Below, piece by piece: positions 12,713 to 45,706 of a DNA stretch of 64,000 bases. The DNA comes from an uncultured Candidatus Peregrinibacteria bacterium (GTDB lineage Bacteria > Patescibacteriota > Gracilibacteria > Peribacterales > Peribacteraceae), in contig CAIKAD010000002.1 of the NCBI GenBank assembly GCA_903825315.1, positions 124,001 to 188,000 on the forward strand. The letters run 5' to 3'. Positions within the stretch are counted from its first letter, which is position 1. Each line of letters starts with the position of its first letter. Under the pieces are notes generated by a model. The model was not told the DNA's origin. It searched no databases and was given only the letters and a program-made list of their open reading frames with translations. Position numbers and translations under genes: made by a program.

Positions 12713-12811
12713 ACATGAATATTATAACATAATTTAGTATTATTAGCAATTTTGTGCCGAAGGAGGGTATCGAACCCTCAGCGCCTTGCGGCACACGATT
12801 TTGAGTCGTGC

Positions 12812-12946
12812 CCGCCCGTACCGAACGTATTCATAATGGTGCCATGGGTGGGAATCGAACCCACATTCCTTGCGGAACACGATTTTGAGTCGTGCGCGTC
12901 TACCAATTCCGCCACCATGGCAAGGATCTACGGTACGTTCGGGCGG
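12812..12946. mobile_element. Insert with CCGCCCG/CGGGCGG arms carrying tRNA-Leu
   Basis: Minus strand CCGCCCGAACGTACCG...CGTTCGGTACGGGCGG; same arm design as 3379-3416. Confidence 0.6.
12837..12921 (-). tRNA. tRNA-Leu (CAA)
   Basis: GCCATGG...CCATGGC-A-CCA, class II variable arm, anticodon loop CTCAAAA. Confidence 0.93.
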
Positions 12947-13052
12947 ACGTGTCTACCAATTCCGCCACTCCGGCACGACGAGATTGTACCTCTTGTCCGG
13001 AGCGCCAGGAAGTGACGCGTGCCGTTCCCCTTTCCGGTATGCTGATGCTCTC

Positions 13053-14369
13053 GTGAAACCATACCAGACCTTCATTTTCGGCTCGCATGCCTTCGATCCA
13101 GCTTCGGGGAAGATCTCGCTGAACTATAGTGTAGACAATGAGGTGACATTTACGGAGACCCTCACGCTGCCGAGCCCTCATCCCCAGGAAGAGATTACTG
13201 ATGATGCCCTGCATGCCCTCCATCTGATAGGAGGAATCAGCTACTTCAAAACGTGTCTTCCTCCCACAATCGAGATCCGGACTAAACCGCTCACCCCGGA
13301 GCAGGCGGACTTCTGGAACACAGTCTACGAGAACGGCCTCGGCGAGTTTTTCTTTCGCAACAACCTTGACCCAAATGACCGGATTCACTTCCCATCCGCC
13401 GCTGCCGGACAGTCCTCCACCAAAAAGACGGCGCAGACAGACCCACAAGCGACCAAACGCATCCTCGTTCCCATCGGGGGCGGAAAAGATTCTGTTGTCA
13501 CTGCCGAGCTCTTACGAAAAGCCGGTCATGACGTCACGCTTCTGCGCGTGGGAAGCCACCCGCTCATCACGTCCCTGGCGAAGGAAATGAATTTGCCACT
13601 CCTGGAAGTGAGCCGCAAACTCTCCCCCAACCTCTTTAAGCTCAATGAGGAAGGCGCCCTCAACGGCCATATTCCCATCACCGCGTATCTGACCTTCCTC
13701 GCCGATGTCATGGCACAGCTCTACAGTTTTGATGCTGTGGTGTGGAGTGCGGAGCGGAGCGCAAACGTGGGCAACACTCTCTACCACGGTATGGAAATCA
13801 ATCACCAATGGAGCAAGAGCCTGACATTTGAACGTGCGCATGGTGCCTACACGCAAGGCATCCCGCCCTCATTCAGCCTCCTGCGCCCCTGGAGCGAGCT
13901 GCGGATTGCGCAGGAGTTCGTGAACTATCCTCAATACCTGCCGTTTACGACGAGCTGTAATGCGAACTGGAAGATCGTACAGAAGCAATCGGAGAAGCTC
14001 TGGTGCGGTCACTGTCCCAAGTGTGCTTTTGTCTATGCACTCTACGCAGCCTTCCTGCCACAACAGAAACTCAACGACATATTCGGCAAAGACCTGTTCG
14101 CCGATCCGGATCTTCTCCCGCTCTTTAAGCAGCTCCTCGGTACGGAAGGCTTTAAACCGTTCGAATGCGTGGGGACGCCGGAAGAGACCAAAGCCGCCTT
14201 CTGCCTCGCGCACGACCGCAAAGAATGGAACGGGACTCCTATTATGGACTTCTTTGAGCGCGAGGTCCTGCCGACCATTACCGATTGTGACGCACTCCTC
14301 AAGGACGCTCTGACTCCTTCAGGGGAACATGACATTCCTCCCCACTACTTCTCCATCCTCCCGTCCTAA
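13053..14369 (+). CDS. murL: UDP-MurNAc-L-Ala-L-Glu epimerase (MurL-like)
   Basis: GTG start; ILVPIGGGKDSVVTAELL, VVWSAERSANVGN, LWCGHCPKCAFVYAL; immediately upstream of a MurD-type ligase. Confidence 0.8.
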   Translation: MKPYQTFIFGSHAFDPASGKISLNYSVDNEVTFTETLTLPSPHPQEEITDDALHALHLIGGISYFKTCLPPTIEIRTKPLTPEQADFWNTVYENGLGEFFFRNNLDPNDRIHFPSAAAGQSSTKKTAQTDPQATKRILVPIGGGKDSVVTAELLRKAGHDVTLLRVGSHPLITSLAKEMNLPLLEVSRKLSPNLFKLNEEGALNGHIPITAYLTFLADVMAQLYSFDAVVWSAERSANVGNTLYHGMEINHQWSKSLTFERAHGAYTQGIPPSFSLLRPWSELRIAQEFVNYPQYLPFTTSCNANWKIVQKQSEKLWCGHCPKCAFVYALYAAFLPQQKLNDIFGKDLFADPDLLPLFKQLLGTEGFKPFECVGTPEETKAAFCLAHDRKEWNGTPIMDFFEREVLPTITDCDALLKDALTPSGEHDIPPHYFSILPS

Positions 14370-20086: not shown

Positions 20087-20163
20087 TGGTGCCACGGGCC
20101 AGGATTGAACTGGCGACCCCAGGCTTATGAGTCCTGTGCTCTACCAACTGAGCTACCGTGGCA
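20087..20163 (-). tRNA. tRNA-Met (CAT); could be elongator Met or Ile2
   Basis: GCCACGG...CCGTGGC-A-CCA, loop CTCATAA. Confidence 0.93.
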
Positions 20164-20217
20164 CGAATGAACTATGGTGGGAATAAACGGATGCCAACCG
20201 AGCCTCTTTATCCATGG

Positions 20218-20264
20218 CGCGTCTCGACAAGCTGCGACGCGGCCAACTGAGCTACCGTGGCACG
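20218..20264 (-). pseudogene. Truncated tRNA-Met 5' fragment followed by a palindrome
   Basis: 20243-20264 repeats the first ~22 nt of the intact tRNA-Met gene; followed by CGCGTC...GACGCG hairpin (20218-20241). Confidence 0.8.
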
Positions 20265-45293: not shown

Positions 45294-45321
45294 TGGTGGG
45301 TCAGGTGAGGATCGAATCCTT
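45294..45321 (-). pseudogene. Truncated tRNA-Lys 3' end copy (T-loop to CCA)
   Basis: Minus strand TTCGATCCTCACCTGACCCACCA, one mismatch to the intact tRNA-Lys 3' end. Confidence 0.8.
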
Positions 45322-45340
45322 CGTCGCCCTGCGGGGCTCC

Positions 45341-45604
45341 TCAGGACGAGCCCACTTCCCTCTTCCACAACGCCTCCTTCTTCATTCTGCTCCAGCCTTT
45401 GATTTCGCGCTCGCGCTTCGCTGCGTTCGCTCTATCCGGTTGCGATTCAGACCACAGTAAACGTCTTATCGAATATTTCTTCGTATGTGAGCAGGCTATG
45501 CCCTCACGATGCTCTTGAAGTCTCCGCTGAAGATCATTGGTATGACCAACATAGTATGATCCATTACGAAGCTTGAGGATGTAGACCTTGAAATGGCTTG
45601 CCAT
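45341..45604 (-). CDS. GIY-YIG domain nuclease
   Basis: FKVYILKLRNGSYYVGHTNDLQRRLQEHREG, AAKREREIKGWSRMKKEAL. Confidence 0.85.
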   Translation of the reverse strand: MASHFKVYILKLRNGSYYVGHTNDLQRRLQEHREGIACSHTKKYSIRRLLWSESQPDRANAAKREREIKGWSRMKKEALWKREVGSS

Positions 45605-45631: not shown

Positions 45632-45706
45632 TGGTGGGTCAGGTGGGGATCGAACCCACGACCAATGGCTTAAAAGGCCACTGCTCTACCACTGAGCTAC
45701 TGACCC
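45632..45706 (-). tRNA. tRNA-Lys (TTT)
   Basis: GGGTCAG...CTGACCC-A-CCA, loop CTTTTAA. Confidence 0.94.

What the first reader, a model, noticed from the sequence alone, without database searches (positions are those of the whole stretch)
12754..12975. A complete tRNA-Leu(CAA) nested inside another, interrupted tRNA-Leu(CAA)
On the minus strand, 12947-12975 is the 5' part of a tRNA-Leu and 12754-12811 is its 3' part. Their acceptor strands pair (TGCCGGA/TTCGGCA) and both lie in correct order. Between them is a ~135-nt insert that carries a second full tRNA-Leu with the same anticodon and an encoded CCA, which the host gene lacks. The insert ends are CCGCCCG/CGGGCGG complementary arms. Either the outer tRNA is a dead gene replaced by the tRNA carried on the element, or the insert is excised at the RNA level and one transcript yields two tRNAs. 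The insertion lies at the D-stem/anticodon-stem junction, not at the usual anticodon-loop intron position. Inference: a tRNA-targeting element that brings a replacement tRNA.
Basis: partly seen in the sequence, partly recalled or inferred. Interest (0 to 1): 0.85.

Follow-up and report, generated by a model that had tools for sequence, protein, structure and literature searches.

The report
Replacement tRNA nested inside broken tRNA
In a tiny-genome groundwater bacterium (Peribacteria), a tRNA gene has been split by a small hairpin-flanked insert that carries a complete tRNA with the same anticodon; the same arrangement recurs in related genomes and sits alongside a wider, apparently undescribed invasion of tRNA genes linked to small DNA-cutting enzymes.

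Summary
On the minus strand a 137-bp insert (12811-12947) splits a tRNA-Leu(CAA) exactly between its D arm and anticodon arm. The insert is hairpin arm, intact tRNA-Leu(CAA), hairpin arm. The genome is a Peribacteraceae (Patescibacteria). It is not an assembly chimera: nine complete nests occur in nine genomes of six genera, in Leu(CAA), Leu(CAG), Leu(UAG) and Thr(UGU). The inner anticodon equals the outer one in all 8 legible cases, and the inner acceptor stem always differs. In a congener the outer tRNA-Thr halves joined are 75/75 identical to an uninterrupted ortholog, so insertion is precise and without target duplication. The window's outer tRNA is decaying (D-stem pair and CCA lost), and another species has lost the outer halves, so the inner tRNA is most likely a live replacement and the outer a dead shell. 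The arms belong to a dispersed hairpin family. More widely, 14 of 47 tRNA genes in this genome have displaced pieces of themselves beside them, and 7 of 7 SegB-like GIY-YIG endonuclease genes sit next to tRNAs; their phylogeny tracks tRNA isotype. I propose homing-type invasion of tRNA genes with tRNA restoration. How the nested cassette forms is inferred. RNA-level splicing is unsupported.

The parts
12983..12988 (-). candidate -10 box (TACAAT) of the outer tRNA gene; only visible promoter upstream of the inner tRNA
   Evidence: read by eye; not tested
12948..12974 (-). outer tRNA-Leu(CAA), 5' part (linear nt 1-27); D-stem pair broken (G to A)
   Evidence: uninterrupted orthologs in G001, G002, G003
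12931..12947 (-). 5' hairpin arm TCCGCCCGAACGTACCG of the insert
   Evidence: dispersed family, 59 exact hits in 17 of 75 family genomes against 1 control hit
12837..12921 (-). inner, intact tRNA-Leu(CAA) with encoded CCA; the only intact Leu(CAA) gene found in the genome
   Evidence: ARAGORN, Rfam RF00005 61.5 bits, survey of 47 tRNAs
12811..12827 (-). 3' hairpin arm CGTTCGGTACGGGCGGG of the insert
12755..12810 (-). outer tRNA-Leu(CAA), 3' part (anticodon arm to discriminator); CCA lost
3358..3428 (+). displaced 5' part of tRNA-Ile (nt 1-21, then 22-33) split by hairpin 3379-3416 of the same family as the nest arms
3438..3701 (+). small GIY-YIG endonuclease gene between displaced 5' part and intact tRNA-Ile
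   Evidence: PF01541 E 1.5e-13
3667..3742 (+). intact tRNA-Ile(GAT)
20216..20261 (-). displaced 5' part of tRNA-Met (nt 1-19) followed by a hairpin, upstream of intact tRNA-Met 20087-20162
45389..45589 (-). GIY-YIG endonuclease gene (matched part) downstream of intact tRNA-Lys(TTT) 45632-45706
45294..45349 (-). displaced 3' part of tRNA-Lys with a hairpin next to the T loop

Best explanation
A short DNA cassette (hairpin arm, tRNA, hairpin arm; 137 bp) was inserted precisely between the D arm and the anticodon arm (nt 26/27) of the resident tRNA-Leu(CAA) gene. It destroyed that gene and at the same moment supplied an intact tRNA with the same anticodon, so the cell survived. The inner tRNA is now the working gene: it is read from the old gene's promoter through the outer 5' half, and RNase P and 3' processing cut it out. 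The outer halves are non-functional and decay. The insertion belongs to a wider, recurrent invasion of tRNA genes in Peribacteraceae, in which GIY-YIG endonucleases of the freestanding homing type cut tRNA genes and the repaired locus keeps one intact tRNA flanked by displaced halves carrying hairpins. Shown here: the anatomy, recurrence, precise empty site, anticodon match, outer decay and loss, dispersed hairpins, and endonuclease adjacency with isotype clustering. Inferred: expression and processing, endonuclease cleavage of tRNA genes, and that the nested form arises in the repair of such cuts rather than by a separate hairpin-transposition process.
For: Uninterrupted GCCGGAG-type outer orthologs in all three congeners G001-G003. 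Reciprocally, G001 has a nested tRNA-Thr(UGU) whose joined outer is 75/75 identical to G002's intact gene, while the window genome has that gene uninterrupted. Nine complete nests in six genera, three Leu isoacceptors and Thr. Inner and outer anticodons equal in 8/8 legible nests; inner acceptor differs in all. Window outer has 7 changes from congeners, among them a D-stem pair and CCA, whereas 46 of 47 ARAGORN tRNAs in the genome encode CCA. G005, same genus as nested G209, keeps only the inner tRNA with a residual arm. Outers in G225, G006 and G005 carry further inserts in the anticodon or T loops. 14/47 tRNAs have displaced same-strand pieces, 5' pieces always upstream and 3' pieces always downstream, against 0/47 on the reverse strand and 1.3% in mismatched loci. 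7/7 GIY-YIG genes lie within 260 bp of a tRNA, P about 2e-12; 24/30 in the family. Leu-associated GIY-YIG genes form one group (91/91, 0/500 shuffles), labels overall 22 changes against 29.8 shuffled.
Against: The nest itself has no endonuclease gene. In simple displaced-half loci the fragment matches the intact copy (self-duplication), whereas in nests the inner acceptor differs, so two processes may be at work. The outer in G001 (Thr) is still perfect, so decay is not universal. No expression data.
Confidence: 0.8

Rival explanations
1. Both tRNAs are functional. The inner tRNA is cut out by RNase P and 3' processing, and the outer is kept as two pieces held by the acceptor stem and hairpin arms, or is ligated: a bacterial split tRNA.
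For: Joined outers fold as tRNAs. The G001 outer is unchanged from its intact ortholog. Acceptor pairing is kept (6-7/7) in 10 of 11 loci counted (9 nests, 2 relics). Arms pair in the fold.
Against: The window outer has lost CCA and a D-stem pair; the G225 outer anticodon loop is replaced by a palindrome; G006 and G005 outers have T-arm inserts; G005 outer halves come from two different tRNAs (4/7 pairs); G005 Leu(CAA) has no outer at all. No intron family was recognised, and the arms are not a bulge-helix-bulge by inspection.
Confidence: 0.07
2. The insert is a tRNA-carrying passenger of a hairpin (REP/MITE-like) transposition process acting on single-stranded or folded DNA, without any role for the GIY-YIG endonucleases.
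For: Arms are a dispersed hairpin family with up to 11 copies per genome. 17 of 18 mapped hairpins in tRNA remnants sit at cloverleaf junctions or loops (7/8, D-loop 3' edge, T-loop apex), one within a D stem. No target duplication in the Thr nest.
Against: The same hairpins occupy displaced halves next to GIY-YIG genes, at the same site, even in distant Patescibacteria. No transposase was looked for genome-wide.
Confidence: 0.3
3. Assembly chimera of two tRNA-Leu loci.
For: tRNA genes are similar to each other and metagenome assemblies can collapse them.
Against: Nine nests from separate assemblies with different flanks, arms and anticodons; the window lies on a 312-kb contig.
Confidence: 0.01

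Closest known systems
tRNA-dependent lysogeny of actinobacteriophages (PMC10865867)
   Different: There a tyrosine integrase and a whole prophage, attB commonly in the anticodon loop. Here 137 bp, no protein, hairpin arms, site at the D-arm/anticodon-arm junction.
SegB-type freestanding GIY-YIG homing endonucleases of T-even phages (PMC13096335)
   Same: GIY-YIG domain, freestanding, associated with tRNA genes; SegB cuts within tRNA genes, motif RAWTSGAAC, which matches the complement of a tRNA T loop, one of the sites where hairpins sit here.
   Different: Phage genes. Here bacterial chromosomal 75-95-aa proteins flanked by a displaced tRNA half and an intact tRNA; cleavage untested.
Rickettsia palindromic elements and other bacterial MITE-like hairpins (PMC2229807)
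   Same: Small dispersed palindromes, reported within RNA genes (tmRNA, RNase P RNA).
   Different: Those are thought neutral to host RNA function and carry no tRNA. Here they sit in dead tRNA copies or bracket a complete tRNA.
Mitochondrial double-hairpin or repetitive hairpin-forming elements and yeast GC clusters (PMC2800124, PMC4618339)
   Same: Hairpins considered mobile, inserted into genes and rRNA at structurally tolerated points.
   Different: Organellar; no tRNA cargo in the passages read.
CPR rRNA insertion sequences with homing endonucleases (PMC11270868)
   Same: Same bacterial radiation, homing endonucleases, inserts at the tops or bases of RNA stem-loops.
   Different: rRNA targets, over half group-I-intron-like, LAGLIDADG dominant; GIY-YIG called sparse; the text does not mention tRNA.

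Membership tests
tRNA intron (group I/II or archaeal bulge-helix-bulge) | recognisable intron structure or canonical anticodon-loop position | tested here: not met
   Rfam finds only the tRNA; insert at the D-arm/anticodon-arm junction; a single 4-nt bulge, not BHB, by inspection
tRNA-dependent lysogeny / integrative element | replacement tRNA of the same isotype inside the insert | tested here: met
   8/8 legible nests
tRNA-dependent lysogeny / integrative element | integrase gene and attachment core | tested here: not met
   137-bp insert, no ORF of its own; no duplicated core at the Thr empty site
Dispersed hairpin (REP/MITE-like) element | multiple dispersed copies of the hairpin | tested here: met
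   59 hits in 17 of 75 genomes, control 1
Dispersed hairpin (REP/MITE-like) element | target-site duplication | tested here: not met
   Thr nest empty site exact, 75/75
Dispersed hairpin (REP/MITE-like) element | a mobilising transposase (such as a RAYT) | not tested
Freestanding GIY-YIG homing endonuclease (neighbouring loci) | GIY-YIG catalytic domain | tested here: met
   PF01541
Freestanding GIY-YIG homing endonuclease (neighbouring loci) | lies at its target and lineage tracks target | tested here: met
   7/7 and 24/30 next to tRNAs; Leu group 91/91
Freestanding GIY-YIG homing endonuclease (neighbouring loci) | cuts the uninvaded target | not testable with these tools
   needs purified protein
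Freestanding GIY-YIG homing endonuclease (the nest itself) | endonuclease gene in the insert | tested here: not met
   137-bp insert without ORF

The most novel reading that the evidence does not exclude
Peribacteria host a self-spreading system specialised on tRNA genes. GIY-YIG endonucleases, each matched to a tRNA isotype, cut tRNA genes. Hairpin-armed cassettes that carry, or rebuild, an isotype-matched tRNA are installed at cloverleaf junctions, as if the target were recognised as folded RNA or single-stranded DNA. Essential tRNA genes are thus overwritten again and again without killing the cell.
Probability: 0.35. Interest if true: 0.9.

Novelty: new variant of a known kind. Interest (0 to 1): 0.8.

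Why it matters
tRNA genes are treated as the most conserved and inert parts of a genome. Here essential, mostly single-copy tRNA genes are repeatedly broken and replaced in place, down to the base, by inserts that supply the missing tRNA. This gives a natural series of states (empty, nested, decayed, outer lost) in which the replacement of an essential gene by an insert can be followed. It also offers candidate tRNA-specific GIY-YIG endonucleases for biochemical test, explains odd partial tRNAs beside intact ones, and shows that tRNA finders can be misled (ARAGORN calls a shifted false second tRNA in the Thr nest).

Tried and rejected
Intron hypothesis: no Rfam match. Assembly artefact: rejected by recurrence. 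Literature: none of ten text searches produced a description of nested tRNAs or tRNA-flanking GIY-YIG genes in Patescibacteria (the first, 'nested tRNA', returned nothing); the library lacks most subscription journals. Exact type-2 palindrome in a phylum sample: only 5 of 389 genomes, so that palindrome is not general, though two of the hits outside the family carry the same GIY-YIG/tRNA-Leu layout. The idea that nests arise by two successive half-displacements was set aside for the window, because the outer halves meet exactly and the arms are complementary. The idea that arms keep pairing by compensatory change was judged by eye only and is weak (G216 arms lose pairs).

Full report
WHAT IS THERE. 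An outer tRNA-Leu(CAA) is split into 12974-12948 and 12810-12755. Between the halves lies a 137-bp insert: arm TCCGCCCGAACGTACCG, a short spacer, a complete tRNA-Leu(CAA) at 12921-12837 with encoded CCA, a spacer, and arm CGTTCGGTACGGGCGGG. The outer acceptor strands pair 7/7 (one G.U), and ARAGORN recognises the joined outer as tRNA-Leu(CAA) with one D-stem pair broken. The genome has 47 ARAGORN tRNAs; the inner tRNA is the only intact Leu(CAA). The neighbours are murL and murD on one side and an archaeal-type glutamate dehydrogenase on the other. Related loci identify the lineage as Candidatus Peribacteria, Peribacteraceae.

IT IS NOT AN ARTEFACT AND NOT UNIQUE. Searches of relatives and named genome records give nine complete nests in nine genomes of six genera: Leu(CAA) in the window genome G000, G209 (record JACQCJ010000106.1), G016 and G223 (DCXE01000004.1); Leu(CAG) in G006, G216 and G005; Leu(UAG) in G225; Thr(UGU) in G001. 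Partly eroded relics occur in G216 Leu(CAA), G201 and G233. All are in Peribacteraceae; the tandem-motif pattern found none in the other families of the class sample (360 genomes). Inner and outer anticodons agree in 8 of 8 nests where the outer anticodon can still be read; the inner acceptor stem differs from the outer in all.

THE EMPTY SITE. G001, G002 and G003, in the window's genus, carry an uninterrupted GCCGGAG-type tRNA-Leu(CAA), the ortholog of the window's outer tRNA. Conversely G001 has a nested tRNA-Thr(UGU) with arms of the same family (CCCGCCCGAACGACCCG ... CGTTCGGGTCGGGCGGG) inserted after GGTA in the D loop. Its outer halves joined are identical at 75 of 75 positions to the intact gene of G002, and the window genome has that gene uninterrupted. 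The insertion is therefore precise and leaves no duplication.

THE OUTER tRNA IS MOST LIKELY DEAD. Against its congeners the window's outer has seven changes in 86 positions, including loss of a D-stem pair and of CCA, while 46 of 47 tRNAs in the genome encode CCA. In other nests the outer has gained further palindromes in the anticodon loop (G225), T arm (G006, G005) or between acceptor and D stem (G006, G216); in G005 the two outer halves come from different tRNAs. G005 Leu(CAA), in the same genus as nested G209, keeps only the inner tRNA with a residual 5' arm. So the outer can be lost and the inner suffices. I infer that the inner tRNA is transcribed from the outer gene's promoter (a TACAAT box lies just upstream) and released by ordinary tRNA end processing; this was not tested.

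THE ARMS ARE A DISPERSED HAIRPIN FAMILY. CCGCCCGAACGNNCCG occurs 59 times in 17 of 75 family genomes against one hit for the reversed control, up to 11 copies per genome, usually closed to a tight hairpin of about 36 nt. The window genome has three: the nest, a displaced tRNA-Ile half (3379-3416), and the leader of the 16S rRNA gene. Twelve of 25 fetched copies lie within 450 bp of a tRNA. A second palindrome, CCTGCCTGCCGGCAGGCAGG, plays the same part in other genomes. Of 18 hairpins mapped inside tRNA remnants, 17 sit at a loop or junction of the cloverleaf (acceptor/D junction, D-loop 3' edge, T-loop apex) and one within a D stem. Many of the Leu cases share descent or transfer, so the independent number is smaller.

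A WIDER INVASION OF tRNA GENES. In the window genome 14 of 47 tRNAs have a partial copy of themselves on the same strand within 900 bp. Every 5' piece is upstream and every 3' piece downstream. The reverse strand gives 0 of 47 and mismatched loci 1.3%. tRNA-Val(CAC) has both, apparently an eroded nest. Small GIY-YIG endonuclease genes (PF01541) lie between the displaced piece and the intact tRNA: 7 of 7 in this genome lie within 260 bp of a tRNA (P about 2e-12) and 24 of 30 of the best family hits are next to a tRNA. Two layouts recur: displaced 5' half, endonuclease, intact tRNA (Leu, Ile, Val); and intact tRNA, endonuclease, displaced 3' half (Phe, Lys, Cys, His, Ser, Gly). At several other loci the endonuclease follows a tRNA but no displaced piece was detected. 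In a tree of 40 proteins the Leu-associated ones form a single group (91/91; 0 of 500 shuffles), including one from another family of the class and one from elsewhere in the phylum, and tRNA labels overall need 22 changes against 29.8 in shuffles. This is what target-specific homing predicts.

MECHANISM, AND WHAT IS INFERRED. The best reading is that tRNA genes are cut by these endonucleases and the surviving products are those in which an intact tRNA of the same isotype is present: either a half is duplicated from the resident gene, or, in nests, a complete tRNA bracketed by hairpin arms is placed inside the cut gene. The link between endonuclease and nest is indirect: shared hairpins at the same site of tRNA-Leu, not an endonuclease gene in the nest. 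An independent hairpin-transposition process is a serious rival. The anticodon match may reflect survival (only matching inserts are viable) or the use of the resident gene as template; in G001, G216, G006 and G225 inner and outer share the anticodon-stem sequence, by inspection, which favours the latter; G005 does not.

COMPARISON WITH THE KNOWN. Functionally it resembles tRNA-dependent lysogeny (PMC10865867), where a phage destroys a host tRNA and supplies the same isotype, but there is no integrase and no phage. The endonucleases resemble phage SegB, which cuts in tRNA genes and whose motif matches the T loop (PMC13096335; the match to the T loop is my reading). Hairpins recall Rickettsia palindromic elements (PMC2229807) and mitochondrial hairpin elements (PMC2800124). 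CPR rRNA inserts are known (PMC11270868), but that paper does not mention tRNA. I found no report of nested same-isotype tRNAs in bacteria in the library searched; most subscription journals are missing from it.

VERDICT. Real, recurrent and best read as a live replacement tRNA inside a dead one. The existence and meaning of the nest are well supported; the engine that makes it is a hypothesis with testable parts.

Noticed in passing
window 3358-3742: Displaced tRNA-Ile 5' half with hairpin, GIY-YIG gene and intact tRNA-Ile(GAT): a complete 5'-type invaded tRNA locus in the same window.
   Followed up: yes
L156 (G000:C5:102400-104600): The nest's hairpin arms also occur just upstream of the 16S rRNA gene, on the opposite strand, with a 54-nt loop.
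   Followed up: partly
window 12755-14369 and loci L001-L043: The tRNA-Leu(CAA)/murL pair is conserved in the family, but the tRNA points now away from murL, now towards it: the tRNA segment seems to invert repeatedly.
   Followed up: no
L132, L139, L141, L158 against nests in L108, L109, L112, L150: Inner tRNAs of Leu(CAG) and Leu(UAG) nests have the GCCGTGG acceptor also typical of tRNA-Leu(GAG) in this family: possibly remoulded copies of tRNA-Leu(GAG) with changed anticodons.
   Followed up: partly
L166 (G576, elsewhere in the phylum) and L168 (G300, other family of the class): Same GIY-YIG plus CCTGCCTGCCGGCAGGCAGG hairpin plus tRNA-Leu layout in distant Patescibacteria.
   Followed up: partly
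L015 (G017:C84), about 150 bp past tRNA-Leu(CAA): A GIY-YIG gene next to Leu(CAA) reads in frame into a Nudix-like domain (216 aa).
   Followed up: no
L223 (G000:C5:52802-52875): A second tRNA-His(GTG) call without CCA, odd for a genome in which all other tRNAs encode CCA.
   Followed up: no
L263 reverse complement 1623-1696: ARAGORN reports a false second tRNA-Thr that starts in the hairpin arm: nested loci can yield spurious tRNA annotations.
   Followed up: yes
L261, L272, L145: Tandem series of two displaced 5' pieces before the intact tRNA (Thr, Pro, Leu), suggesting repeated rounds of invasion at one locus.
   Followed up: partly
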